A stretch of 64,000 nt of DNA. Origin: Methanolobus vulcani. Lineage in GTDB: Archaea; Halobacteriota; Methanosarcinia; Methanosarcinales; Methanosarcinaceae. The translations under genes were made by a program, and so were the position numbers. Below, in pieces: positions 8,088 to 53,757 of this stretch (the first letter of the stretch is position 1; every line of letters begins with the position of its first letter). The stretch is from assembly GCF_900100715.1 (NCBI RefSeq), contig NZ_FNCA01000001.1, forward strand, positions 310,001 to 374,000, given 5' to 3'. The notes beneath the pieces are model-generated. The model was not told the DNA's origin. It made no database searches and saw only the letters and a program-made list of their open reading frames with translations.

Positions 8088-8969
8088 TTACTTCCAATCG
8101 TTCCAAAATTTAATAGCACTATTTATAAATTTTTGAGCTTTGCCTGTCGACCACTGATCAGATGAATCCCCAAAAAGATCTGTAACTCCATTTTGACATT
8201 TAAAATTACTTATATCACTTTGATTCAGATACGACAGTACATTATAGACTGTATTTCCATAACATGACTCAAATTTGGAATTTGGAATATTGTAAAGTAA
8301 ACATTCAATGAAATATGAAGGTGCTTCACTTTTACCAATTAAATTATTATCAATAAGTTTTGATTTTATATTTTTGAATATCCTGATTGCAGAGTAATAA
8401 TTGCCATTAGTATTATTGCTTTTTAGTGTCCCATTTTTGTCATGTTGTTTCGGATAATTTACTACCCACCCTTCATTTGACTTAAAAGTCATTCCTTCAA
8501 TGTATTTTTCATGTACACTATTAGAGTATTTTTCATAAAGCCGATATTGCATACAAACAACAACATCTGCATCTAAGTATGGAGTTTTCACTTTAATACA
8601 TTTATTTCCCTGATTTACTGTAAAACCATTCTTATTGTTTAAGGCACTAAAAATATCTGATCTAAAATTATCCCAAAGATATGTTGCATTAGAATGATCT
8701 TTGTTATATGCATCTTTTTCAGGTTGTGATAATTTGCTTAAATCCTCTCGGAAAGTTGAATTTAATTGTATAACAACATCAACATCACTATTACTTCTGG
8801 TTGTTGTTGAATTCTTATATGAGCCCTGTAGATAGATTTCATAATTTGGCTTTCCACTTGGCCAACTATATGCAGCTATAGCCTTGCGTATTGATTCATG
8901 TGCATCTTTATATTTAGCTTGTGAACCGGGATTTGCCCAGATATCCAGTTGATTTTCAGGTATTGTCAT
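8088..8969 (-). CDS. CBASS CD-NTase (SMODS nucleotidyltransferase)
   Basis: Synthesises a cyclic oligonucleotide alarm signal on phage or virus infection. 293 residues. The start MTIPENQLDIWANPGS is typical of bacterial CD-NTases. The catalytic signature is complete: Gly49-Ser50 in LQGSYKNSTT, Asp62 and Asp64 in SDVDVVI, and a third Asp at 135 in YLDADVVV. The C-terminal half is the usual helical OAS-like lid. It is followed directly by the Cap15-like effector and there is no Cap2/Cap3 or HORMA/TRIP13 gene, so this is type I CBASS. The product nucleotide cannot be told. Very AT-rich compared with the flanking housekeeping genes, which fits horizontal transfer. A GGTGA site precedes the ATG. 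Confidence 0.9.
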   Translation of the reverse strand: MTIPENQLDIWANPGSQAKYKDAHESIRKAIAAYSWPSGKPNYEIYLQGSYKNSTTTRSNSDVDVVIQLNSTFREDLSKLSQPEKDAYNKDHSNATYLWDNFRSDIFSALNNKNGFTVNQGNKCIKVKTPYLDADVVVCMQYRLYEKYSNSVHEKYIEGMTFKSNEGWVVNYPKQHDKNGTLKSNNTNGNYYSAIRIFKNIKSKLIDNNLIGKSEAPSYFIECLLYNIPNSKFESCYGNTVYNVLSYLNQSDISNFKCQNGVTDLFGDSSDQWSTGKAQKFINSAIKFWNDWK

Positions 8970-14492: not shown

Positions 14493-15362
14493 ATGACAAT
14501 TCAAATTGATCCGCTTATTGATGAACCTGCCCTTGTGGTAAGCAACGAAACAAAGTCACTGGTAGTTGCCGATATCCATCTGGGAATTGAATGGGACCTC
14601 TACAGAAGTGGATTTTCCATACCAAGCCGCATGAAATACGGCCTTGAAAGGATTCTGAAATACATCGACCAAGTGGCTCCTGAAAGAATTATTCTGCTTG
14701 GAGATGTAAAACATAACGTGCCACAAATATCATGGCAGGAAAGAGACGAAATACCATATTTCCTTTCAGTACTTTCCGACCATGCAGATGTGGAAATATT
14801 CCCCGGAAACCACGACGGAGGAATAGAGTATCTGCTTCCGGACAGGAAAAACATAACCGTGCATCCTGCAAGGGGAGCCATTATTGAAGACGTAGGTTAT
14901 TTTCACGGACATACGTGGCCGGACCCTAAAATGTTCAAAGCTGAATACATCATCACTGCGCACAACCATCCTACAATCCGTCTTACCGATTCACTTGGCT
15001 ATGCCATGGTAGAACAGAGCTGGATAAGGACACGCCTGAACCTCCCTGTTCTGCAGGAACATTTCAGCAGTCTTGAACTTGAAAAGGACAGTGAGAACTG
15101 GAATGATCCTGAAATGATAATCGTACCATCCTTCAATGAACTATGTGGAGGTGTGGCTTTCAATGAATCGCTGCATGATGATCTTCTGGGACCATTATTC
15201 TCATCACGCGGTGTTGATATCGATAATGCACAGGCATACCTGCTTGATGGAACCCAACTGGGAAAGCTGAAGAACATAAGAAAACTTGAGGAAAGCAAGG
15301 TTCGCACGAGGATAAAACGTAAAGGTTCAAAGAAAAAGGAACAAAAAGGGAGCGGAAAATGA
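14493..15362 (+). CDS. Calcineurin-like metallophosphoesterase, Lhr-associated
   Basis: 289 residues with the two-metal phosphoesterase motifs in order: VADIHLG (Asp, His), LLGDVKH (Gly-Asp), FPGNHDGG (Gly-Asn-His-Asp), HGHTWP and TAHNHP (metal His). The C-terminal tail is lysine-rich (residues about 268-289). The stop overlaps the start of the Lhr helicase gene by four bases (ATGA). This phosphoesterase/Lhr pairing is seen in other prokaryotes and points to nucleic acid end processing or repair. The substrate is unknown. Confidence 0.88.
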
Positions 15363-18190
15363 GTTTTGACAACATATTCGATTCATTTGATCCGAGAATT
15401 CAGACCGCTCTGGAAAAACAGGGATTTAAAGCACCAACTGAACCTCAGGAAAAAGTGTTTCCTTATATCCTGAAAGGTGATCATACATTCCTTATTGCTC
15501 CAACGGGTTCAGGAAAGACCGAATCTGCAGTTCTTCCCATATTCCATGCCATTCTTGCCAAAACCCAGGAGCAAAGGACAGGAATATCAGCTCTTTACAT
15601 CACACCCCTAAGGGCTCTTAATCGTGACATGCTTTCCCGAATACAATGGTGGGGAAAGGAACTTGGTATCGATGTCCAGGTAAGACACGGAGATACTTCC
15701 CAATATGAGAGACAGAAACAATCACGCAAACCACCTGATTTCCTGATCACAACACCTGAAACTTTGCAGGCGATGTTTACCGGTTCACGCCTGAGAAAGA
15801 ACCTGTCCTATGTAACTCATGTTGTCGTGGATGAGATACATGAAATGGCATCCTCAAAAAGAGGAACACAGCTTGCGGTTGGACTTGAAAGACTTGTGGA
15901 ACTTTCAGGAGAGTTCCAGAGAATCGGGCTTTCAGCCACTGTAGGTAATCCTGAGGAAGTTGCAAAGTTCCTTGCAGGTTCTGAAAGAGAGGTGTCCATA
16001 ATCTCGGTTTCCCTGCTAAAGCTGCTGGATTTCAGTGTTGTAAGCCCGCAGGTTACTGATGATGACATTACGCTCTCAAAGAAGCTGGCATGCGATGTGA
16101 ACTTTGCAGCACATATACGCTGTGTTCGGGATATTGTTCTGGATAATGTTTCCACGCTGGTTTTCGTGAATACAAGACAGAGTGCTGAAGCACTCGCTGC
16201 CGGATTTAATATGCTGGAACTGCCAATTGGAGTTCATCATGGTTCATTGTCTGTGGATTCACGTATCGAGGCAGAGGAATCATTCAAAAACGGTGACCTT
16301 CAGGGACTAATTTGTACATCGTCAATGGAACTTGGAATTGATATCGGCAACGTGGACCACGTTGTCCAGTATGGCTCACCTAGACAGGTTTCCAGACTTT
16401 TGCAGCGTGTTGGACGTGCAGGTCACAGGATACATGAAGTTTCCAGAGGTACAATCATTGCAATGGATGCCGATGATGTGGCAGAAAGCATGGCAATCTG
16501 TAAACTTGCCACTGAAGGAAAGGTTGAATCTATTTCTCCGCACATGAATTCACTGGATGTTGTGGCAAATCAGCTTGCAGGTATCGTTCTTGATTTTGGA
16601 GATATCGGAATTGATAAGATATACAGCATCTTAAAACGTGCCTATCCTTTCAGGAACCTTCGGATCGAGGTTCTCAGGAAAGTAATAGCTCAGATAAAGG
16701 ATTACCGTATGGTCTGGCAAGAAGAAGGTTCCGATAATATCAGCCGCAGAAGGAAGAGCTGGCAATACTATTACGATAATCTTTCCATGATACCGGATGA
16801 GAAGAAATACGAAATATTTGATATTGTAACCGGCAGACCGGTTGGAGTTCTTGATGAGGCTTTTGTTATTAATTTTGCAACACCTGGTGCGGTTTTCATT
16901 ACAAAAGGAGACATGTGGCGTGTCATAGAGATGATAAGCGACCGCAACAGAATAAAAGTTGAACCGGTCAGAGGCATGGGAGAAATACCGAGCTGGACAG
17001 GCGAAGAGATCCCTGTTCCTTTTGAGGTCGCTCAGGAAGTTGCAAATATTCGTTCTATAATTGCAGGTATGATCCTTGAAGAAAATGAAGACGAGGAAAT
17101 AGCCACTAAACTGGCTGCGTTGTACCCAATTGACCCCGAAAGCCTGACAGAGCTTCTTTCCATAATCAGAGAACATGTTGAAGGTGGTTATCCACTCCCC
17201 GACCAAAATATGTTCGTTATTGAGAATGATGGGGATGCAGTGTTAATAAACACCTGCATCGGACACAATGCCAACGAAACGCTTGCAAAGGTGCTGACAT
17301 CACTGCTGGCTGCAAGATATGGAAGCAGCGTGGCACAGGAGATCGACCCTTACAGGATAAAGATGACATTGCCACGCAGGATCAAGGCTAAGGAAATTGA
17401 AACACTTTTGCAGGATATTCAGCCGGAACATATTGAACCTATTATTGAAATGACCTTGAAGAACACTTCACTGATGAAGTGGAAGATGGTGCATGTTGCC
17501 AGGAAGTTCGGTGCCCTTAGCAAGGATATTGATTATGACAGGATTAGCATGAAGAAGCTGCTTGAGATATATCGTGATACTGCAATGTATGACGAAGTTA
17601 TCCGGGAGATCTTCCATGATATGCTGGATGTTGAAAGAGTTACGGATATACTTAGAAGGATGGCTGAAGGTGAGATCCGCCTTGTGGTGAGCAAGTCAAC
17701 ACCTATAGGAAGTTCGGGTTTCTCTATGAAACGTGACCTTGTGGCTCCTGAGAAAGCTGACAGGTCAATTGTTATGGCTCTGAAAGAACGTATTATGAAT
17801 GACAATGTTATCCTTTTCTGTGTGCATTGCAAGAAATGGACATCAAGAAGACAGGTGAAGAATGTTCCTGATAAGATAATATGCCCGGTTTGTGATTCCG
17901 GGATGGTGGCTGCACTCAAACCATGGGAAGATGAGGAGATCAAACTTGTCAGAAAGCAGGATAAGGTCACTGCAAAGGAGGATATCAAACGTATCCGCAG
18001 GGTTTACAGGAATGCGAATATTGTCATGACACATGGAAAAATGGCAGTAATAGCACTTGCAAGCAGAGGTGTGGGACCTGAAATGGCAACCCGTGTGATA
18101 CAGAAAATGCGACATGATGAAGAAGCATTCTATCGTGACATTCTGGTAGCTGAAAGGAACTATGCCAAGAACAAGAGATTCTGGAGCTGA
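15359..18190 (+). CDS. lhr: Lhr-type superfamily 2 helicase
   Basis: 943 residues, the Lhr core length. Motif I is [11 protein letters not shown], motif II DEIHEM, motif III SATVGN, and the C-terminal RecA domain has [18 protein letters not shown] and QRVGRAGHR. After the helicase core comes the Lhr winged-helix/core region, then near the C-terminus a probable zinc knuckle: two CxxC pairs, in FCVHCKKW and IICPVCDSG. Lhr proteins are 3'-5' DNA/RNA-DNA helicases for repair. Coupled by four-base overlap to the phosphoesterase. Confidence 0.95.
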
Positions 18191-18704: not shown

Positions 18705-19715
18705 ATGAACATGAAAGAAAGATTACTCAAAGCATTAAAAGGTGAAGAAGTCGACAAAGTACCTGTTTGTACTGTTACACAGTCCGCTATTGTTGAGCTT
18801 ATGGACCAGACAGGTGCAGCATGGCCAGAGGCACACAGCGACGCACAGAAGATGGCAGACCTCGCAATCGCTTCATACGAAGTATGTGGTCTTGAGGGTG
18901 TAAGAGCTCCATACTGTCTCACAGTACTTGCAGAAGCAATGGGCTGTGAAGTCAACATGGGTACAAAGAACAGACAGCCATCAGTCACAGACCACCCATA
19001 CCCAAAGGGTGTTGACAACCTTGCTATGCCAGAGAATCTCCTTACAGTAGGCAGAATCCCTGTCGTAATGGAAGCAATGAAGCTCATCAGAGACAAAGTA
19101 GGAGACGAAGTACCTATCATCGCTGGTATGGAAGGTCCTGTAACACTCGCATCCGACCTCGCAAGTGTAAAGAAGTTCATGAAATGGTCAATCAAGAAGC
19201 CAGAAGACTTCCAGACAATCCTCGACTTCGCATGTGATGCATGTATCGAGTACGCAAACGCACTCTTCGACGCAGGAGTAGACGTAATAAGTGTACCAGA
19301 CCCAGTATCATCCCCTGACCTCATGGCTCCTGACACATTCGACAAGATGCTCAAGCCATGCCTTCAGAAATTCGCTGATGGTGTAAAGGGCCCAATGATT
19401 CTCCACGTTTGTGGTGACGTAACCCCAATCCTTGAAATGATGGCAGACTGCCACTTCGAATCTATCAGTATCGAAGAGAAGGTAAAGGACCTCAAGGGCG
19501 CAAAAGCAAAGGTAGGAGACAAAGTCACTATCTGCGGTAATGTATCAAGCCCATTCGTACTTCTCGCAGGCGACGAAGCAGCTGTAAAGGCAGCAGCAAC
19601 AAAGGCTCTCGAAGACGGAATCGATGTTCTCGCACCAGGCTGTGGAATTGCACCTGACACCCCAGTTGCAAACCTTAAGGCAATGGTCGAAGCAAGAGAC
19701 GAATACTACGCATAA
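18705..19715 (+). CDS. mtaA: Methylcobalamin:coenzyme M methyltransferase
   Basis: Transfers the methyl group from methylated MtaC corrinoid to coenzyme M, giving methyl-CoM for methanogenesis from methanol. 336 residues, uroporphyrinogen decarboxylase-like fold. The zinc ligands are His and Cys in LHVCGDVTP and the C-terminal Cys in LAPGCGIAPDTP. The start MNMKERLLKALKGEEVDKVPVC is typical. Codon use is strongly biased, as expected of a highly expressed gene. MtbA, the methylamine isozyme, is close in sequence; the mtaCB genes 3 kb away favour MtaA. Confidence 0.9.
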   Translation: MNMKERLLKALKGEEVDKVPVCTVTQSAIVELMDQTGAAWPEAHSDAQKMADLAIASYEVCGLEGVRAPYCLTVLAEAMGCEVNMGTKNRQPSVTDHPYPKGVDNLAMPENLLTVGRIPVVMEAMKLIRDKVGDEVPIIAGMEGPVTLASDLASVKKFMKWSIKKPEDFQTILDFACDACIEYANALFDAGVDVISVPDPVSSPDLMAPDTFDKMLKPCLQKFADGVKGPMILHVCGDVTPILEMMADCHFESISIEEKVKDLKGAKAKVGDKVTICGNVSSPFVLLAGDEAAVKAAATKALEDGIDVLAPGCGIAPDTPVANLKAMVEARDEYYA

Positions 19716-43228: not shown

Positions 43229-44599
43229 TGATTTATCCCCACATGTGTGGGGAACTCTCGCATAGGTTGCAATATACTTCTTCAGATGACGGTTCATCCC
43301 CACGTGTGTGGGGAACTCGCGGGAATGTCTTGAGTCAATTGAAGAAGGTACGGTTCATCCCCACGTGTGTGGGGAACTCGTTGGATCTACGTCAATATTT
43401 GCAACTGTGAACGGTTCATCCCCACGTGTGTGGGGAACTCCAGAGCAAATAAGGCGTCCGGTACTGTAATAACGGTTCATCCCCACGTGTGTGGGGAACT
43501 CCAGAGCCGCAAATACAATATAACACGCTATCACGGTTCATCCCCACGTGTGTGGGGAACTCTGTTTCGCGATAATAGAGCCGCTGAAAGATGTCGGTTC
43601 ATCCCCACGTGTGTGGGGAACTCTTTATTATTATTATTGTAATTTATTAGTTGTGCGGTTCATCCCCACGTGTGTGGGGAACTCCAGTATGCCGACCCCT
43701 ATTAAAATTAAAATGTCGGTTCATCCCCACGTGTGTGGGGAACTCTATAGAGTAATTTGTCCCAGAGTCGCCAAACTCGGTTCATCCCCACGTGTGTGGG
43801 GAACTCTGCCTCTGAGGTCGCCCAATCTTGAATAGTTCCGGTTCATCCCCACGTGTGTGGGGAACTCTTATACAGGTCGCTCTGAGGGCGTGAAACGGTC
43901 GGTTCATCCCCACGTGTGTGGGGAACTCTGTTTTTAGGATCATACGGGAAATAGCCAAATCGGTTCATCCCCACGTGTGTGGGGAACTCTGTGATATATG
44001 GAATTTCGTAGTTTGTAGCCACGGTTCATCCCCACGTGTGTGGGGAACTCCAAAAAAAGCATGTAATTCGTCCAGACCTACGCGGTTCATCCCCACGTGT
44101 GTGGGGAACTCGTATTACTTTGATCAAGACAGCATCCTTGAACCGGTTCATCCCCACGTGTGTGGGGAACTCGGTAGAACATATCCCATTTGCCAGATAT
44201 TTTATGGTTCATCCCCACGTGTGTGGGGAACTCGGAGGAATAGGTAAGAGCCTATCCTGAAAATACGGTTCATCCCCACGTGTGTGGGGAACTCTCGGAA
44301 TCAAGGTTAATTTCATTTATGAAGTTCGGTTCATCCCCACGTGTGTGGGGAACTCGCAGTCACGGTTTCATCTGTCACCCGAACAGGCGGTTCATCCCCA
44401 CGTGTGTGGGGAACTCTTTTACGGTGATGAACTCATAAGAGAATAGTACGGTTCATCCCCACGTGTGTGGGGAACTCTCTGATACTTGACTTTTGATACC
44501 TGGCACATTCGGTTCATCCCCACGTGTGTGGGGAACTCGTTTGGTGATGATCTGTTGTTGTGTGTTATGACGGTTCATCCCCACGTGTGTGGGGAACTC
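43229..44599 (-). CRISPR. Type I-E CRISPR array, 23 repeats and 22 spacers
   Basis: 29-bp repeats beginning CGGTTCATCCCCACG and ending TGTGGGGAACTC on the plus strand, exactly every 61 bases, with 32-bp spacers throughout. The reverse complement (GAGTTCCCC...GAACCG) is the standard I-E orientation, so transcription runs leftward from a leader on the cas2 side. The leftmost repeat (43229-43257) is degenerate, reading ATTTATCCCCACATG, which marks the leader-distal end. All others are identical except one base at 44205. The repeat can fold as CCCCAC-GTGT-GTGGGG. Confidence 0.98.
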
Positions 44600-44733: not shown

Positions 44734-45910
<1,177 letters not shown>

Positions 45911-45935
45911 TCGATTAACACCTCATTCAAATGAA

Positions 45936-46553
45936 TCAGATTTTTGCAAGAGTTAAGAGACCACATCCAAAAGATTTAGCAGGACCAATTCCATTTGCTA
46001 TTTTAGCAATCAATAATTCCGGATTTTCTACAGTTAGAACTCCTAAAAAAGTTACAGTTTGAATCTTGCCAACATGCCGGTCTCCAGATTTATTCTTATA
46101 AAAACGAAGCAAGTTCTTGTGAACCAGTTCAACGGAATCTACTTCTGCACTACCCTCTAACTGCCTTTTAATCCATGCTACAATTTCCTCATCATGAATA
46201 AGAGGCACTCTTACTTTTCCTTGGTTTCTTTTGTCCTTGCCACTTTTGTCATTGATTTTTTTAGTTGGGTTCGCACACAACATGAATCTATAGCTATTTC
46301 CGGCTTTTAAGTCAAAATGAACTTCCTTTGGTTCTCTTAACATAATCAGTTCCTCGGATGTTGCTTGTGGCTGAGAGAGGGATTGCAAGAAAATGTGTTG
46401 TTCACAGTTTTGTCTGGTGTTTTCAATTCTGAATAAAAAGGAACGTTCAGCATCGGCTTGATCAGGGAACAATTGCCATATTATTTTGTGTAATCGATAT
46501 GGATTTACCGGTTTATTGGATTTGAGCAACCACTTACTGAAGTACATGTTCAT
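45936..46553 (-). CDS. cas6e: CRISPR RNA endonuclease Cas6e
   Basis: 205 residues, MNMYFSKWLLKS... An ATG two codons later is equally good. Catalytic His in YRLHKIIWQLFP near residue 23 and the C-terminal glycine-rich GPAKSFGCGLLTL. Cuts the repeat stem to yield crRNA and stays in Cascade. It overlaps the cas5e end by 20 bases. Confidence 0.95.
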   Translation of the reverse strand: MNMYFSKWLLKSNKPVNPYRLHKIIWQLFPDQADAERSFLFRIENTRQNCEQHIFLQSLSQPQATSEELIMLREPKEVHFDLKAGNSYRFMLCANPTKKINDKSGKDKRNQGKVRVPLIHDEEIVAWIKRQLEGSAEVDSVELVHKNLLRFYKNKSGDRHVGKIQTVTFLGVLTVENPELLIAKIANGIGPAKSFGCGLLTLAKI

Positions 46554-47223
46554 CTCCTAGAATGTATATTGTTCGTGTAGCAAACTGTCGCACCGGGTCT
46601 TGAATAGGAACATCACGGATTTGCATGGGTGATGAACCTGTTATCTTTTGCTCGCTGTACAGAGTGCCTTGTTTTGGCTCTATCTGGTCCAATGCTTGCT
46701 GGACATTTTCAGCGGATATTATTTTTTCAAATAAAGGGCGATGTATAGGACATGACCGACGCCCCAGAACTGGAGTATAATATGGTTTCTGAATAGCTTC
46801 CTTTACCTTTTCCAGAGTGTAAACTGCGTCATCTCTAAAAGCTAAAGCTAATGTAAATTCAGCATCGTACAGATATTCGCGATAAGAAATAATTGCATCA
46901 GATCGCGAGCTTCCATCGACTTTGCGGGCATCAAGGACAGTATGATAGTCTGTCAATTTTTGCATTCTTAATGGCTTTTCCTTGATACGGCCAAAATGCT
47001 CTGTTTTGAGCTTACGGCGATCAGCCCTTACAAAAAGCTCAAAACTTGCATTTAAATCTGCTCGACTTTGAATATCCGATCTGTCTATACCCAGACAAGC
47101 ACCCAATAACCCGACAACTGCACTGCGGGTAGGAAATATGTGGCTTGGGCGATAATCCTCAAAGGTATGCCCACCCCAGGATTGCATTGCACCCTGCAAC
47201 TTTATTATTAAATATTCTTGCAT
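46534..47223 (-). CDS. cas5e: Cascade subunit Cas5e
   Basis: 229 residues. QEYLIIKLQGAMQSWGG at the start and FPTRSAVVGLLGACLGI are Cas5 hallmarks; PVLGRRSCP near residue 165 is typical. Binds the 5' handle of the crRNA. Confidence 0.95.
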   Translation of the reverse strand: MQEYLIIKLQGAMQSWGGHTFEDYRPSHIFPTRSAVVGLLGACLGIDRSDIQSRADLNASFELFVRADRRKLKTEHFGRIKEKPLRMQKLTDYHTVLDARKVDGSSRSDAIISYREYLYDAEFTLALAFRDDAVYTLEKVKEAIQKPYYTPVLGRRSCPIHRPLFEKIISAENVQQALDQIEPKQGTLYSEQKITGSSPMQIRDVPIQDPVRQFATRTIYILGDEHVLQ

Positions 47224-47238
47224 GGTTCACATCCCGGC

Positions 47239-48372
47239 TTAATTTCCATTATTTTTTAACCATTCCTTGAGCTTTGAGAGATCAGCACCCATATTCGTTG
47301 CAGTTTCTAAATTGCATTCCTTTGTACTGAAGAGGGCTTTCTTGTCATCTGTTAAGCCATAAGCACTGGAAATAGTCTTATGATAATCCAGCAAGGCATT
47401 AATTGAAGGCTCCATGAATCCGTTTCCTCTTGCTTTGACAGGATTTTCAAAAGCATTTGCTAATGATATTGGTTGATCACTAAAACTGACAAGTGCGAAA
47501 TCTGCGAGGTTAAAAGCTGCAAAAGCATTTTGTTTGGCAGATGGCACGACTGTTGCCAGCATATGCAGGACATGTGAAGCAATATCCAGTGCCTGCTCAC
47601 GGTCTACATCACCCAAGTTTTCTTGTAGCTGCCTGAGGTTTAAACTTGCATATCGATAGAACACACCTGAACTGAATTCAGTTGTATCTAAGTGAGCTGA
47701 ACCGGTTTCTCCAGTTTCCTGATTCAGATCATCAACAGCAGTGAACCAATCTATATCAGTATCTACAGTGTGTGTTGTGATTGCATGTGCAACTGCAAGA
47801 GAAGCATCCACGATGGTCATTATTCCTGAAGTGGCCATTCTTCCGGATAAGGCTATGTCCTGACCATTTTGTAATGCTTCACGAAACAGCTTAACCTTTG
47901 TTTTATCATCGAGAAGCTTCTTTTTATCTGTTGCATTTTTCCATTCCTTTCCGAATTCCTTTTCATTCGGGAATTGCTCCTGTAACTGTTGATATAACTG
48001 ACAGTATTGCTCCACTTCAGAGATAGTCCACGCTGCAACTGCACCAGATTGAGTGTTCTCCTTGATCTCTGATTCACCAGAAATCAATGACATAACAGAT
48101 TTTACCAAGTTTTCACCATACTTGTCTTTCAAAGCTTCCACATACTTTGCAGTCAATTTTCCTAATTGTCTGGTTCTGTCACTTGGCATTCCAATGTTGT
48201 TTTTGTAGTAGTCTGAGTGCCTCATTGATCTCTTTAGACTCTGACTTGATATGCGCGTTCTTTTTATCCCACCGAATACAGCGGTTTTCTGCATGTTCAT
48301 GTCATCCCTGTTAAGATTGGATGGACTGTGCGAAATCAAAATGTGGTAGTTGACATAATTCTTTTCATCCAT
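47239..48372 (-). CDS. cas7e: Cascade backbone subunit Cas7e
   Basis: 377 residues. NYHILISHSPSNLNRDD with KRTRISSQSLKRSMR, and later GRMATSGIMTIVDASLAVAH and an internal HTVDTDIDW. Six copies normally line the crRNA. Starts directly after cse2. Confidence 0.95.
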   Translation of the reverse strand: MDEKNYVNYHILISHSPSNLNRDDMNMQKTAVFGGIKRTRISSQSLKRSMRHSDYYKNNIGMPSDRTRQLGKLTAKYVEALKDKYGENLVKSVMSLISGESEIKENTQSGAVAAWTISEVEQYCQLYQQLQEQFPNEKEFGKEWKNATDKKKLLDDKTKVKLFREALQNGQDIALSGRMATSGIMTIVDASLAVAHAITTHTVDTDIDWFTAVDDLNQETGETGSAHLDTTEFSSGVFYRYASLNLRQLQENLGDVDREQALDIASHVLHMLATVVPSAKQNAFAAFNLADFALVSFSDQPISLANAFENPVKARGNGFMEPSINALLDYHKTISSAYGLTDDKKALFSTKECNLETATNMGADLSKLKEWLKNNGN

Positions 48373-48375
48373 GAT

Positions 48376-48816
48376 TTACTCCTCCTCTTTAGTATAAATA
48401 AAGAAATTTTGAACAAGCTGTTTTTTTGATCTTTCTCCCCAATAGAACAGGCTTTTACCAAATGCATCCCAATCGATGCTCTTTAGTTTGGCTTGCTGTA
48501 CAGCACGACGCAATTGAACCAGATCATTTGGTGAGCTTGAACGGACAATCTGAAAAATCCGTTTCTCACTGATTTTTCCATCGTTGAGTTGCCTGCCTAA
48601 AGGCTTGGCATTTTCACTATGTTTCTCAGCAAACGGTAAAAGGAAAGCTACGCGTGCCAGTTGTTTTATATATCCTGGATTTTGGTATCCTATAAGATGA
48701 TAAAATGCTGGCAAACATTCCAGATCACCAGGAGTTGAAGCACGCCTTATTTCTGCACGTTGTCCATTATCCAGCGTTTCCCAGAAACGTTGATGAAGTT
48801 CAGTAAACTTTTCCAT
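48376..48816 (-). CDS. cse2: Cascade small subunit Cse2 (Cas11e)
   Basis: 146 residues, helical, basic: REIRRAS-type AEIRRASTPGDLECLPAFY, ARVAFLLPFAEKH and VQLRRAVQQAKLKSIDWDAF. Stabilises the target R-loop. Confidence 0.92.
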   Translation of the reverse strand: MEKFTELHQRFWETLDNGQRAEIRRASTPGDLECLPAFYHLIGYQNPGYIKQLARVAFLLPFAEKHSENAKPLGRQLNDGKISEKRIFQIVRSSSPNDLVQLRRAVQQAKLKSIDWDAFGKSLFYWGERSKKQLVQNFFIYTKEEE

Positions 48817-48846
48817 AATGTAACCTCATATTCTCCTATTATTTAG

Positions 48847-50385
48847 TTAGTTATTATCTCCTATTTTTGCAAGGTTTCTAGTTAGCGTTCTACGACCAGC
48901 TACAACAGCTTTCAGCAATTTTGGGTCATGCTCGTAGGGTAAAAAAGTAGTATCAAATGTACCCATAGCCAATTGAACAAAATAGTTTTTGTATTTTGAT
49001 ATCTCACTAACATCTAATCTTCTCATTATACTATGAAAAACTGGCTCAGACCCTGCAAAATAATTCTTTTTAGTTTGCTCTTTCAGTTTCTTTATTAAAT
49101 TTGACTCCTGCTCCTTATTTCGTATAGTTCGAATTTCGTTTAACTCCTTTCCAAAAGAGTAGATGGCATAATCAAGTGCCTTTTGAGCATCTAAACCGTA
49201 GGATATTAGCAAATTAATTTCTGCTATCTGATTTTCCCAACCAGAAGATATTCCATATAATTCGTGTTTTCTAGCAGCTATACTTTCTTGTGATCCACCT
49301 TTAACATATCCTCCCACAACTAAATTTATTGATTTTCCACGACCAATCGTTTGTTCGTAGTGTGATACAACCACAGCTCTGCTTGCTCCTTCTTGTCCGG
49401 GACTTTTAGTATAAAAGTAACTTAGCATTTCAGTCCAAACAGGATAGTCTCTTCTCAAAGACAAAAATGGTTTTTTACTGGATTTATTTTCTTTAAAAGC
49501 TATTTCATCAATTGGTGTATGTGGATGTTTCCAAAATCCCTCAAAGTAACTCATTCCGGGTTCTGTTAAAAATCCGGATAATATATGATCGTCATCAACA
49601 AATAACTTTATTTTAGCAGGTTGCCAAAAAAGACCTCTTAGTAAACCAATGCTTTGGGCATTCTCTGGACTACTTTTATCAAATGAGGGGAGAACTACCC
49701 AACTAGGATTATTATTTTTGTTTCCATCAAGAAGAGAAGTATTTTGATGAAAATAATCTTTATTTATCACATTAGCCCAGATGGTTTTTCTTAAATTTGT
49801 AGCCTGTATCAATGTAGTTGATGGCATTGAGCCTTTTAAACCAACTGCAAATTGTGCACCACCTAAGCTAAAACCATTTGTAGCTTGCTGAAAAATTGCA
49901 ATTGCAATTTCTCCATAAAACGCATTGTTGATTTCATATGCAGTATTAAAGAATGCTTTTGAAGAAGGCGAGCTACTACTAATTTCAGGCAAACCTATGA
50001 ATAATTTCTGGAACGAAGTCCAGTTTTTAGGAGTCTGACCTTTTGAATTTGCATCTTTAGCTTTCACATCGGCACACTGCATAAATGGATATTTAGGATG
50101 TAACAAATCGAACCATTCCATAAATGACACTATGCCCTTCTCATAATCCGCCTCGCTCATTGTTTTTTCATAAGCATCTAACAAATCGTATTTGTCATCA
50201 GGCATGAAAATAACTTGTACAATACAAACTATCAGTTGCAAAGCAGCCATTTCCATATCATCGCGGGACAAACAAATCTGCCAGTCTTCATCATTACAAA
50301 GCAAACTTTTCAGGCTGATTGTTTCAAACTGCCCTTGCTTTTGAACTGGAATCCAATCCTCTGTAAGTAAATTAAAACCTGTCAT
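48847..50385 (-). CDS. cas8e: Cascade large subunit Cas8e (Cse1)
   Basis: 512 residues: FNLLTEDWIPVQKQG at the start, then FSLGGAQFAVGLKG and SREE-like segments of the Cse1 family. Recognises the PAM and recruits Cas3. Overlaps the end of cas3 by four bases. More AT-rich than cas1 or cas3. Confidence 0.93.
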   Translation of the reverse strand: MTGFNLLTEDWIPVQKQGQFETISLKSLLCNDEDWQICLSRDDMEMAALQLIVCIVQVIFMPDDKYDLLDAYEKTMSEADYEKGIVSFMEWFDLLHPKYPFMQCADVKAKDANSKGQTPKNWTSFQKLFIGLPEISSSSPSSKAFFNTAYEINNAFYGEIAIAIFQQATNGFSLGGAQFAVGLKGSMPSTTLIQATNLRKTIWANVINKDYFHQNTSLLDGNKNNNPSWVVLPSFDKSSPENAQSIGLLRGLFWQPAKIKLFVDDDHILSGFLTEPGMSYFEGFWKHPHTPIDEIAFKENKSSKKPFLSLRRDYPVWTEMLSYFYTKSPGQEGASRAVVVSHYEQTIGRGKSINLVVGGYVKGGSQESIAARKHELYGISSGWENQIAEINLLISYGLDAQKALDYAIYSFGKELNEIRTIRNKEQESNLIKKLKEQTKKNYFAGSEPVFHSIMRRLDVSEISKYKNYFVQLAMGTFDTTFLPYEHDPKLLKAVVAGRRTLTRNLAKIGDNN

Positions 50386-52970
50386 ATTTTGCCCTTCTGC
50401 AAACCTCTGTCCTGAGTATAAAGTAAGTAACCGCCATCATAATCAAAACGCCATCCTTCATCTGTTTTAGTCATAGCTAAGTAATACAATCCATCTCGAT
50501 TTTCAGGCAAAATGCTCCTCCAAAAATTGCTGTCTGGAACTCCCAGACTGTTTTGGCTCAAAAGTTCCCGATCAAACTTATCATCTGGCTTGGGTACAGG
50601 CAAACCGTCCAAAAAGTATCTAACTCCAGCTTCTTCTGTCACCGGTATTACACTTAGATTCATTTTTCCTTCACGTGTAAGCGAATTTGCATTGCCTTCT
50701 GAATCCATAAAGAAAGTATCAGCTTGAGTCAGTCCCTTCGATATCCACTTACTTGCCCATTCTTCCGTTTCATATTCTTCATGCAATTTTGTCAATGACT
50801 CCGGCTCATTCTCCCATCTGCTCTTATCATAAACACGTTCAATCCAATCACGATATGCTTCTGGAAACTGGATTGTATTATTTTGCTCTAACAAGCATTG
50901 AGTGCGCCAAAGAACTCTTGTATTTTTATAGACAAAATTATGTAAGCCGTATATTTTCTTTGGATTATCAGTTAAATCCACATCAGCAATATTTGGCATC
51001 ACAACCGTGCAGCGTGGCTTATTATAGGAATCAGGACGCTGCTTTAAATGCCTGTGCAACCTCCCCATACGCTGAAATAGCAGATCAATTGGACATATAA
51101 ATGATATCATCCAATCAAAATCAATATCCAATGATTGTTCAATTACCTGAGTTCCAACTAATATCCGTCCCTGATCAGGACTCTTTTTATCATAATTATC
51201 CAATACTGTTTTTTCTTTATTCATTCTGTCACAGTATCGATATCTTGAATGGAAAATATCAACTGGAATAGAAGCCATTTCACCTAGAAGATGTGCATAT
51301 CTTTGTGCATCATCAACTAAATTACAAACAATGCCGACTTTAGCTCCCTCTTCTGCTGCTTTAACTATCTGTTCAAGTTGTTCATTGGATATTGAACAAT
51401 CATCCGTTTTCCATAACTCGATTTCAACAATTTTATCCTGAATATTGTTCCGAGTCTCTAATTTAAATATATGAACATCGCTATCTGTTGCCTGTAAAAT
51501 CAAAGGATATTCTTTTTCATCGATTACAGCATCAGTACCCCACGCACTACACAGCGATTGCTTTTGATATGCAGGAAGAGTTGCAGATAGTAAAATGACA
51601 CTGCCACCTGCTTGTTTTTGTTGTTTGATTACAGCTTCCAAAATGCCGTACATGTAAGCATCATAAGCATGAATCTCATCAATTATCAAAACACTTTTTC
51701 CGATTCCAAAACTCCGAACAAAATAATGCTTTAAGGGTCTTATTGCTGAAAGCATGACCTGATCAACAGTAGTGACTGCAATTTGTCCTAAAAAAGCACG
51801 TTTTCTGCTGGAAGATAACCATTCACTACACTGTGCACCGGCTTCAAGATCACCCTGAGGATTAATAGACTGTCTGTGTCTTTCAATCATCCTTTTGAAG
51901 TGTTCATTAGAATCCCGCTTCCCATGTGCCAGGATAACGTTGTCATTACTTTCGAATATTTTGTAAGCAACATTTTCCAGACGATCTAACATTGCATTTG
52001 CTGTTGCTTGCGTGGGCAAAGCAAAAACTATACTGTCCGCTAAACTATCCGCCAATAATCTGGATGCGTAAGCCAAAGCAGCTTCTGTTTTTCCACTGCC
52101 AGTACTGGCTTCAACTATGATTAAAGACTGTTCTACTGACAATCTATCGATTAGTGTTTGTATGTTCTGTGGTGTGTAATCAGGATAAAGAGCTTGCATC
52201 CCGCCAATAGTATGTACATGAGCTAAAAGACCAAAGTCATTCAAAGCTTTTAATGCATTTTCTTTTCTGCTACTAAAGTAATCCTCTAATGATGCTTCAT
52301 TTGAGGATTCAATTTGTTGGAATTCAAAATGTTCTCTATTGGACCCCAGCCAATCACAAACACTACAAAATCCTGCAAGCAATACCGGTGGATTTTCTGT
52401 AGGGATATTATCAAAACTAATACCGGCAGGCTCTAAAAAAATGCGGTTCAATTCTTGTATCAACATTTGGCGAGCCAGGCAATCTTGCACTGTTACAGAT
52501 TCATCAACAAATGGAGGAAAATTGGGTTCAGCGTTTGTAGGAATAGACCCGTGATGTCCTGCAACTGCGGCAAACCAATTTTGTAACCAGTCTTGCTGCC
52601 TGTAAGCAACATTCTCAAAATAAATATCACTTTCAAGCACGAACCACTTGTATCCTTCGTCACCATGAAAATAATTCTTCGTTCCTAAATTTTTAGGCAA
52701 ATTTGCATTGTAGTTTGTTTCAGCTAAATCCAAAACCTTCATCTGGAACCGAACATCAAATTTCCCAAGATCATGTAACGCAACGAAGAACATCACCCAT
52801 GCATGAGCTTGTTCTTCGAACAAGCCTGTTTCATGGGAAAAACGATGACGTATACTCGGGCTGTTCTCCCACCACTTATCAGCAACTGCTGCAACATCCA
52901 TGCAGTGATAAGGCAATGGATGCCAGATTGACTCCTCCGCTTTCCCCCAATATTTGAATATTTCTTTCAA
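50382..52970 (-). CDS. cas3: CRISPR helicase-nuclease Cas3
   Basis: 862 residues. N-terminal HD nuclease: His22, His66-Asp67 (VALHDLGKFD) and His139-His140 (AGHHGSIP). The SF2 helicase has ASTGSGKTEAALA, DEIHAYDAYM, LLSATLP, GTQVIEQSLDIDFD and QRMGRLHRH. First gene of the cas operon; a minus-strand TATA-like stretch near 53000-53010 lies just before it. Confidence 0.97.
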   Translation of the reverse strand: MKEIFKYWGKAEESIWHPLPYHCMDVAAVADKWWENSPSIRHRFSHETGLFEEQAHAWVMFFVALHDLGKFDVRFQMKVLDLAETNYNANLPKNLGTKNYFHGDEGYKWFVLESDIYFENVAYRQQDWLQNWFAAVAGHHGSIPTNAEPNFPPFVDESVTVQDCLARQMLIQELNRIFLEPAGISFDNIPTENPPVLLAGFCSVCDWLGSNREHFEFQQIESSNEASLEDYFSSRKENALKALNDFGLLAHVHTIGGMQALYPDYTPQNIQTLIDRLSVEQSLIIVEASTGSGKTEAALAYASRLLADSLADSIVFALPTQATANAMLDRLENVAYKIFESNDNVILAHGKRDSNEHFKRMIERHRQSINPQGDLEAGAQCSEWLSSSRKRAFLGQIAVTTVDQVMLSAIRPLKHYFVRSFGIGKSVLIIDEIHAYDAYMYGILEAVIKQQKQAGGSVILLSATLPAYQKQSLCSAWGTDAVIDEKEYPLILQATDSDVHIFKLETRNNIQDKIVEIELWKTDDCSISNEQLEQIVKAAEEGAKVGIVCNLVDDAQRYAHLLGEMASIPVDIFHSRYRYCDRMNKEKTVLDNYDKKSPDQGRILVGTQVIEQSLDIDFDWMISFICPIDLLFQRMGRLHRHLKQRPDSYNKPRCTVVMPNIADVDLTDNPKKIYGLHNFVYKNTRVLWRTQCLLEQNNTIQFPEAYRDWIERVYDKSRWENEPESLTKLHEEYETEEWASKWISKGLTQADTFFMDSEGNANSLTREGKMNLSVIPVTEEAGVRYFLDGLPVPKPDDKFDRELLSQNSLGVPDSNFWRSILPENRDGLYYLAMTKTDEGWRFDYDGGYLLYTQDRGLQKGKI

Positions 52971-53038
52971 TTAAATATCACTCTCACAATTGCTTGATGA
53001 TAAATATTAAGCAAAATTCCAATGTATCTAATGTAATA

Positions 53039-53150
53039 CTGTATACCTTTAATATATACTTTACTATTCAATAATTAAACTGTATTACTATCAAAATACT
53101 ATGTACCCATATATCATCGAATACACCTATATACGTCTACTTGTATACAG
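53039..53150. promoter_or_regulatory. Inverted CTGTATAC pair in the cas3/csa3 intergenic region
   Basis: CTGTATAC at 53039-53046 and its inverse GTATACAG at 53143-53150, in the 187-base divergent promoter region. One copy is 69 bases before cas3, the other eight bases before the regulator start. Candidate operators for the regulator. Confidence 0.4.
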
Positions 53151-53157
53151 GTAAACG

Positions 53158-53757
53158 ATGCCAAATCTAACACTCATAACTACACTCTACACACTCGACC
53201 CCGTACTGGTCTGTATAACACGTCTTTCACCTTCAAGAGTGATAGTTATTACAGAAGATGGAGCAGTTGACAAGAAAGCCCAAGCAGAGCGGATACTGGA
53301 AACCACATTTGGCAAAGTGATTGAGATTCAGAAACTGATTACTTCGCTGTATGATCCGGTAATGGTTGCTCAGGATGTGGCAGATATCATTGAACAAGAA
53401 CATGACATGGGAAATCAAGTAATTCTCAATGTGTCGGGCGGAAGAAAACCACAGGCATTTGGATCTCTTTTTGGAGCCTATGCACGAAGTGAAATGGTAA
53501 AAAAGGTTGTCTATGTAAAGGAAGAAGATAATGCTATGATCGAGTTTCCTATACTTGGGTTTAATATATCCCCCACCAAAAAAGCAATCCTTGAACATAT
53601 TAAGCAGGGTGAGAAAGCAGTTAGCAAAATTGCCGTGAAAGTAGATATCTCAAGAGGAATGGCCTATAATCATATTCGTGAACTCAAGGAAATGGGCTAC
53701 ATATCAGATGAGGATGGATTCGACATTACCGATTCAGGAAGGCTTGCAGTAATCTGA
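53158..53757 (+). CDS. csa3: Csa3-like CARF/winged-helix regulator
   Basis: 199 residues. The N-terminal CARF-type Rossmann domain (about 1-130: PNLTLITTLYTLDPV, then ILNVSGGRKPQAFGS) can sense cyclic oligoadenylate in other members. Residues about 140-199 are a winged helix (ISPTKKAILEHIK, SRGMAYNHIRELKEMGYI). AGGTAA precedes the ATG. It is divergent from cas3, so it probably controls the cas operon and itself. Confidence 0.9.
   Translation: MPNLTLITTLYTLDPVLVCITRLSPSRVIVITEDGAVDKKAQAERILETTFGKVIEIQKLITSLYDPVMVAQDVADIIEQEHDMGNQVILNVSGGRKPQAFGSLFGAYARSEMVKKVVYVKEEDNAMIEFPILGFNISPTKKAILEHIKQGEKAVSKIAVKVDISRGMAYNHIRELKEMGYISDEDGFDITDSGRLAVI

What the first reader, a model, noticed from the sequence alone, without database searches (positions are those of the whole stretch)
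52971..53757. CARF-type Csa3 regulator on a type I-E locus
Csa3 is classical for type I-A and other archaeal systems. Here it is divergent from cas3 of a I-E locus with paired CTGTATAC sites. If it binds cyclic oligoadenylate, the nearby CBASS or a type III signal could tune CRISPR expression.
Basis: inference. Interest (0 to 1): 0.52.

Follow-up and report, generated by a model that had tools for sequence, protein, structure and literature searches.

The report
Shared CARF switch on defence promoters
A nucleotide-sensing-type regulator sits in front of a CRISPR operon in a methane-making archaeon with its own 19-letter DNA site, and keeps that place in relatives while the CRISPR machinery behind it is swapped, in an organism with no detected source of the regulator's usual signal.

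Summary
In detail: window 53158-53757 encodes a Csa3-type CARF-wHTH protein, divergent from cas3 of a complete type I-E operon. The "paired CTGTATAC sites" are half right. The cas3-side copy is the left arm of a 19-bp dyad, GTATAC-N7-ATATAC (53041-53059), whose strict form occurs once in the 2.95-Mb genome. It overlaps the predicted cas3 TATA box and recurs about 116 bp upstream of csa3 in relatives. The csa3-side copy is found only in the window and its closest relative.

Csa3, cas1 and the dyad stay while the ~7-kb I-E effector cassette is exchanged; four csa3 sister pairs differ in I-E variant. Csa3 relatives also sit beside type I-B operons and, with dyad-like sites in 7 of 7 loci, beside UvrD-PDDEXK helicase genes.

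The proposed signal is poorly supported. No Cas10 or RAMP gene was found in this genome, and only 6 of 32 Csa3-bearing relatives have Cas10. The CBASS is real but 44 kb away, carries a cyclic-dinucleotide effector (Cap15), and its cyclase is in 4 of 119 genomes. The CARF pocket keeps motif 2 but lacks the Csa3 cA4 motif 1. Best reading: a local repressor relieved by an unidentified ligand.

The parts
53158..53757 (+). csa3: CARF + winged-HTH regulator, 199 aa, single full copy in the genome
   Evidence: model matches Csa3 2wte/6wxq
53041..53059 (.). 19-bp dyad GTATAC-N7-ATATAC, proposed Csa3 operator
   Evidence: only exact match of GTAYACN7RTATAC in 2.95 Mb; conserved in relatives
53052..53065 (-). 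predicted BRE/TATA (AGTAAAGTATATAT) of the cas3 promoter, overlapping the dyad's right arm
   Evidence: sequence read, conserved; promoter assignment is inference
53128..53133 (+). predicted TATA box of csa3, about 25-30 nt before the ATG, suggesting a leaderless transcript
   Evidence: TATATA conserved in the 9 aligned loci; the similarly placed M. mazei gene MM_0565 is leaderless (PMC7465815, passages)
50382..52970 (-). cas3 (type I-E), first gene of the effector cassette
   Evidence: NF007248, 947.9 bits
48847..50385 (-). cas8e/cse1
48376..48816 (-). cse2/cas11
47239..48372 (-). cas7e
46534..47223 (-). cas5e
45936..46553 (-). cas6e
44999..45910 (-). cas1e (adaptation side, not exchanged)
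   Evidence: homology with L081 stops at 45911
43229..44599 (.). CRISPR array, 61-bp period
45911..52942 (.). exchangeable effector cassette: no long DNA homology to relative L081 between these points, high homology on both sides
8088..8969 (-). CBASS CD-NTase, candidate but unlikely signal source
   Evidence: PDLC00788, 373 bits
7483..8106 (-). CBASS effector Cap15 (cyclic dinucleotide receptor domain)
   Evidence: PF18153, E 2.5e-32

Best explanation
The protein is a Csa3-family (CARF3) transcription factor that forms a dimer and binds the 19-bp dyad at 53041-53059. The dyad overlaps the TATA box of the cas3 promoter, so the bound dimer should keep TBP/TFB off and repress the I-E effector operon. 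A ligand at the CARF dimer interface would change the dimer and release the operon. The ligand is not identified; in this genome it is not expected to come from type III CRISPR, because none was found. Regulator, operator and adaptation genes form a fixed frame at this locus, while the effector cassette behind the promoter is exchanged. Shown: the gene, its family and fold, the dyad, its conservation and near-uniqueness, the cassette exchange, and the absence of detected Cas10/RAMP genes. Inferred: DNA binding, repression, dimerisation and ligand control.
For: Family and fold. Exact dyad once in the genome. In the close loci 11 of 19 operator columns are invariant versus 13 of 55 between it and csa3's TATA box (8 rows counted; Fisher p 0.008, which ignores relatedness), although those columns lie nearer to csa3. 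A relaxed pattern drawn from 9 loci (8 of 9 match) matches 12 of 27 other csa3 upstream regions against 0.8 expected from shuffles; background 6 of 265 upstream regions of other ORFs; 0 of 6 upstream regions of cas3 without linked csa3. In the close loci the dyad stays at about -116 whether the partner is I-E variant 1, variant 2 or I-B. Window versus L081: DNA homology runs from 52942 rightward and up to 45911, not between apart from one 83-bp stretch. Tree: four sister pairs differ in I-E variant. No Cas10 or RAMP match in the genome. The GG-R-K and EED regions are at or above 95% conserved in 35 members.
Against: No binding experiment exists for this protein. A CARF-wHTH protein in the same arrangement in Methanosarcina mazei, MM_0565, bound its own promoter (285 nM) and the CRISPR leader, but not the cas8b promoter, and its overproduction did not change cas expression (PMC7465815, passages). 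Sulfolobales Csa3a bound DNA non-specifically in vitro, and cA4 did not alter specific binding (PMC8699464, PMC8844856, passages). The relaxed pattern is found in only 2 of 8 I-B loci and 0 of 8 'other' loci. The 27 held-out loci are related: at 80% identity they form 9 clusters, 5 with a hit. TATA conservation accounts for part of the right-arm conservation. The absence of Cas10 rests on two family models and one assembly of 20 contigs.
Confidence: 0.55

Rival explanations
1. Cyclic oligoadenylate from type III CRISPR controls this Csa3, as proposed for Sulfolobus Csa3a.
For: Fold matches cA4-bound Csa3 6wxq and other cA4 receptors. Motif 2 (SGGRK) and Glu122 are present. The profile aligns, weakly, with the Can2-type CARF 8bao over the GG-K motif (E 0.014). 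6 of 32 Csa3-bearing genomes have Cas10.
Against: No Cas10 or RAMP match in this genome. Cas10 in 6 of 32 Csa3-bearing against 13 of 87 other genomes, p 0.59; Cas10 or RAMP in 11 of 32 against 17 of 87, p 0.14. cA4 motif 1 (G-F-N/D-x-x-F) is absent in all 36 members.
Confidence: 0.12
2. The CBASS in the window makes the ligand for Csa3, so CBASS activation tunes CRISPR.
For: A CD-NTase and Cap15 effector are present 44 kb away; the idea that CD-NTase products could be Csa3 ligands is in print (PMC8699464, passage).
Against: This cyclase is in 4 of 119 genomes and in 2 of 32 Csa3-bearing ones (G000, G036). Cap15 is a cyclic-dinucleotide receptor, whereas known CARF ligands are larger rings (recalled). 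G001, with a 96% identical Csa3, has neither this cyclase nor a SMODS match. Other CD-NTase families were not exhaustively searched.
Confidence: 0.05
3. The ligand is the housekeeping nucleotide c-di-AMP, linking CRISPR expression to osmotic or potassium state.
For: A diadenylate-cyclase domain is found in 112 of 119 genomes, including the window's own and 31 of 32 Csa3-bearing ones. In M. mazei, salt stress stabilises the CARF protein and induces crRNA and cas genes, and an unknown allosteric effector was suggested (PMC7465815, passages). c-di-AMP has a suggested osmoregulatory role in Haloferax (PMC6741144, passages).
Against: The cyclase is near-universal, so its presence discriminates nothing; no CARF is known to me to bind c-di-AMP (recalled); no pocket modelling was done.
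Confidence: 0.12
4. Csa3 works with the effector complex itself: repression with Cascade bound at the promoter, relieved when Cascade leaves for target DNA (Csa3b model of S. islandicus, recalled; only its citation was seen).
For: Csa3b is described as a repressor of effector genes (PMC7694759 passage).
Against: The same regulator clade serves I-E variant 1, variant 2 (cas3 about 33% identical) and I-B, so a kept protein-protein contact with Cascade is hard to maintain.
Confidence: 0.15
5. Csa3 activates transcription or acts at the leader, and the conserved dyad is mainly promoter sequence with chance symmetry.
For: MM_0565 binds the leader and raises cas1-solo transcript (PMC7465815, passages); Csa3a activates adaptation genes in Sulfolobus (PMC8699464). 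The right arm overlaps the TATA box.
Against: The left arm (GTAYRY) lies outside the TATA box and is kept in the 9 close loci; in L124, a I-E locus in a genome without csa3, the TATA part remains and the left arm differs (one case). The dyad also occurs away from the TATA box in L063 and L100.
Confidence: 0.2

Closest known systems
Csa3a/Csa3b of Sulfolobales (Sso1445; PDB 2wte, 6wxq, 6w11)
   Same: CARF plus winged HTH over the whole length, role as cas regulator, motif 2 and Glu region
   Different: Type I-E host locus in a methanogen instead of I-A; cA4 motif 1 absent; no type III system found in the genome; candidate operator overlaps the effector promoter's TATA box
MM_0565 of Methanosarcina mazei (PMC7465815)
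   Same: CARF-wHTH gene divergent from the first effector gene of a type I operon; leaderless transcript
   Different: Type I-B rather than I-E; bound own promoter and leader but not the cas8b promoter; orthology not tested here by sequence, because that protein's sequence was not retrieved
CRISPR module exchange between adaptation and interference cassettes (cited in PMC4390879 for archaea and for a bacterial type I-E system)
   Same: Adaptation side stays while interference genes are exchanged
   Different: Here the regulator and its operator stay on the other side, so the cassette is exchanged between two fixed flanks

Membership tests
Csa3 (TIGR01884 / CARF3) | Profile score above curated cut-off | tested here: met
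   120.6 bits against cut-off 60.2
Csa3 (TIGR01884 / CARF3) | N-terminal CARF and C-terminal winged HTH | tested here: met
   Pfam HTH_5 at 138-183 and Cas_APE2256/HFX_2341_N in the N-terminal part; full-length fold match to 2wte (model pLDDT 76)
cA4-binding Csa3a/b | cA4 motif 1, hydrophobic-G-F-(N/D)-x-x-F, as revised in PMC8844856 | tested here: not met
   Window residues 9-16 read T-L-Y-T-L-D-P-V; no Gly before residue 35 in the window; no G-F in this stretch in 36 of 36 rows; motif text; no residue-level alignment to Sso1445 was obtained
cA4-binding Csa3a/b | cA4 motif 2, small-(small/hydrophobic)-G-hydrophobic-R | tested here: inconclusive
   S93-G94-G95-R96-K97: the Gly fits, Arg in place of the hydrophobic residue, Lys in place of Arg98
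cA4-binding Csa3a/b | Binding of cA4 | not testable with these tools
   needs an in vitro assay
cA4-binding Csa3a/b | Genome supplies cOA (Cas10) | tested here: not met
   No PF22335 or PF03787 match in G000
Type I-E CRISPR-Cas | cas3, cas8e, cse2, cas7e, cas5e, cas6e, cas1e and array | tested here: met
   cas2 not tested by a model
CBASS | CD-NTase plus effector | tested here: met

The most novel reading that the evidence does not exclude
This Csa3 clade is a system-independent defence switch: a regulator plus cognate dyad at a fixed position, into which different effector cassettes are placed (two I-E types, I-B, and UvrD-PDDEXK helicase loci with exchanged partners and no recognised cas genes nearby), driven by a ligand that does not come from Cas10, for example c-di-AMP.
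Probability: 0.3. Interest if true: 0.72.

Novelty: new variant of a known kind. Interest (0 to 1): 0.47.

Why it matters
What Csa3 senses in organisms without Cas10 is stated as unresolved in print (PMC8699464, caveats passage). This locus makes it directly testable: a compact protein with a conserved pocket, a defined candidate operator, and related genomes with no detected Cas10, RAMP or matching cyclase. If one regulator-operator pair serves several unrelated effectors, archaeal defence genes would share a common transcriptional switch.

Tried and rejected
The single CTGTATAC word as a signal: rejected. SMODS family as a CBASS marker: its match in the own genome is the CCA-adding enzyme, and most of that call's matches are ORFs of about 460 aa, the same size, so its tally of 90 of 119 was not used. 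Sequence-only PDB search with the single protein found mostly ArsR-type HTH matches; the profile search did not list Csa3 itself. Search for relatives in viral contigs found none. No dyad was found in the array leader region by the pattern searches (up to one mismatch). Further near-matches in the window at 19278, 40194 and 54436 were not pursued. Papers that could not be read: PMC5389559, PMC3903273. The 2020 CARF classification paper was seen only as a reference. L092, L077, L078 (partial csa3) and L098 (no upstream DNA) were left out of the dyad count; L076 (csa3 broken into two pieces) is in the dyad count but not in the tree.

Full report
What is there. Window 53158-53757 (+) encodes a 199-aa protein with a CARF domain and a winged HTH. 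It scores 120.6 bits against the Csa3 model TIGR01884 (cut-off 60.2) and 297.8 bits end to end against one CARF3 model. It is the only full Csa3 found in its genome. A model built on six sequences (pLDDT 76, pTM 0.61) has Sulfolobus Csa3 2wte as its best Foldseek match and the cA4 complex 6wxq third; VIA-align gives Z 14.3 over 181 residues (rmsd 6.3) for 2wte_B. On the other strand runs a type I-E operon from cas3 to cas1 and a CRISPR array. The nearest named relatives are Methanolobus.

The operator. The conserved element is longer: GTATAC-N7-ATATAC at 53041-53059. In the 2.95-Mb genome the pattern GTAYACN7RTATAC has a single exact match, this one; with one mismatch allowed there are 34 matches over both strands, against 90 for the reversed control pattern, so only the exact match is informative. 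In nine close loci the dyad is kept at -115 to -117 from csa3 (8 of 9 by the relaxed pattern, the ninth, L087, with one arm change). Eleven of 19 dyad columns are invariant against 13 of 55 in the stretch between it and the csa3 TATA box (counted on 8 rows, the near-identical L081 left out).

Test on other loci. The relaxed pattern GT..A.N7.[AG]T..AC was drawn from those nine and tried on 27 further csa3 upstream regions: 12 match, 0.8 expected from shuffles. I had already looked at the upstream sequences of these loci by eye before fixing the pattern, so the hold-out is not blind. By neighbour class, training loci included: I-E 11 of 13, UvrD-helicase 7 of 7, I-B 2 of 8, other 0 of 8. Background: 6 of 265 upstream regions of other ORFs; 0 of 6 upstream regions of cas3 without linked csa3. 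Relatedness weakens this: at 80% protein identity the 27 form 9 clusters, 5 with a hit. Two of the hits, L093 and L073, sit at a different place from their neighbours' sites and may be chance.

Geometry. On the cas3 strand AGTAAA-GTATATAT (53065-53052) reads as BRE and TATA, so the dyad covers the TATA box and the stretch after it. In archaea such a site usually means repression; this is inference. csa3 has its own TATA box 25-30 nt before its ATG, as in the leaderless M. mazei gene (PMC7465815, passages).

Cassette exchange. Between the window and L081 (genome G001) Csa3 is 96%, Cas1 99%, AlaXM 94% and the histidine kinase 91% identical, but Cas3 only 33% and Cas7e 36%. DNA homology stops at 45911, the cas1 start, and resumes at 52942, 28 bp inside cas3 (apart from one 83-bp stretch inside cas3). 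In a tree of 36 Csa3 proteins four sister pairs differ in I-E variant (window/L081, L083/L088, L082/L089, L063/L100); variant 2 needs 8 changes for 8 rows, no fewer than shuffled labels. L087, with an 87% identical Csa3, has type I-B-like genes instead (cluster membership with the L065 operon). Exchange of interference cassettes is known in archaea and in a bacterial I-E system (PMC4390879, passages); a retained regulator-operator pair on the other flank is what this case adds.

Other neighbours. 11 of 19 Cas7e places in 119 genomes have csa3 within about 7 kb on the same contig. Other Csa3 genes lie next to type I-B operons or next to a UvrD helicase with a C-terminal PD-(D/E)XK nuclease, with TPR, DEAD-TPR or DUF4011/MTES_1575 proteins as changing partners. 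A named example is plasmid pMETHO01 of Methanomethylovorans hollandica, where csa3 is annotated near a TPR protein and an ATP-dependent helicase and no cas gene is annotated within 9 kb besides csa3 (the gene table is incomplete). I call these candidate defence loci from family resemblance only.

The signal. No Cas10 (PF22335) and no RAMP (PF03787) match in this genome. Counting genomes with a Csa3 match at E at or below 1e-50 (32 of 119), 6 have Cas10 against 13 of 87 others (p 0.59); 11 have Cas10 or RAMP against 17 of 87 (p 0.14). The window's CBASS is a CD-NTase with Cap15; its cyclase is in 4 of 119 genomes, 2 of them with Csa3. A diadenylate cyclase is in 112 of 119 and in 31 of 32 with Csa3, so c-di-AMP is available but its presence discriminates nothing.

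The pocket. Across 35 close members T9, Y11, S93-G94-G95-R96-K97 and E122-E123-D124 are at or above 95% conserved, which argues for a bound ligand. The cA4 motif 1 of Sulfolobales Csa3 is not there; Can2-like CARFs align weakly over the same stretch (8bao, E 0.014). The Methanobrevibacter homologue L008 has lost the GG-R-K motif but keeps the recognition helix (87% over 164-178).

Against this reading. The M. mazei protein MM_0565, in the same arrangement on a I-B operon, did not bind the cas8b promoter and its overproduction did not change cas expression; it bound its own promoter and the leader (PMC7465815, passages). I-B loci also show the weakest dyads, so the I-E and I-B members may differ, or the M. 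mazei finding may hold here too. Nothing here measures binding.

Print check. Searches listed no paper that, by title or abstract start, reports Csa3 on archaeal type I-E or this operator. One paper, of which I read passages, lists I-A, I-B, I-D and III loci as Csa3 contexts, says many genomes with Csa3 lack Cas10, and proposes CD-NTase products as possible ligands (PMC8699464, caveats passage). The library is open-access only.

Verdict. An ordinary family member in an uncommon place, with a well-marked candidate operator and an unusual pattern of cassette exchange behind it.

Noticed in passing
48847-50385 and L083: cas8e alone looks exchanged between the window and L083: 44% identical while cse2, cas7e and cas5e are 96-97%.
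   Followed up: partly
L084, L085, L086, L091, L094, L069, L130: UvrD-PDDEXK helicase genes beside csa3 with changing partner genes; possible undescribed defence loci.
   Followed up: partly
L127 (G103:C32): Upstream of cas3 a csa3-type promoter region appears to end in a start codon without a csa3 gene, which looks like a recent loss.
   Followed up: no
L124 (G051): I-E locus in a genome without csa3 keeps the TATA half of the dyad but not the GTAYAC arm.
   Followed up: no
14493-18190: Metallophosphoesterase-domain gene followed by a helicase that scores 359 bits against BREX BrxHI models.
   Followed up: no
L008 9391-9981: Methanobrevibacter filiformis Csa3 relative has lost the GG-R-K pocket motif while the DNA recognition helix is kept.
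   Followed up: no
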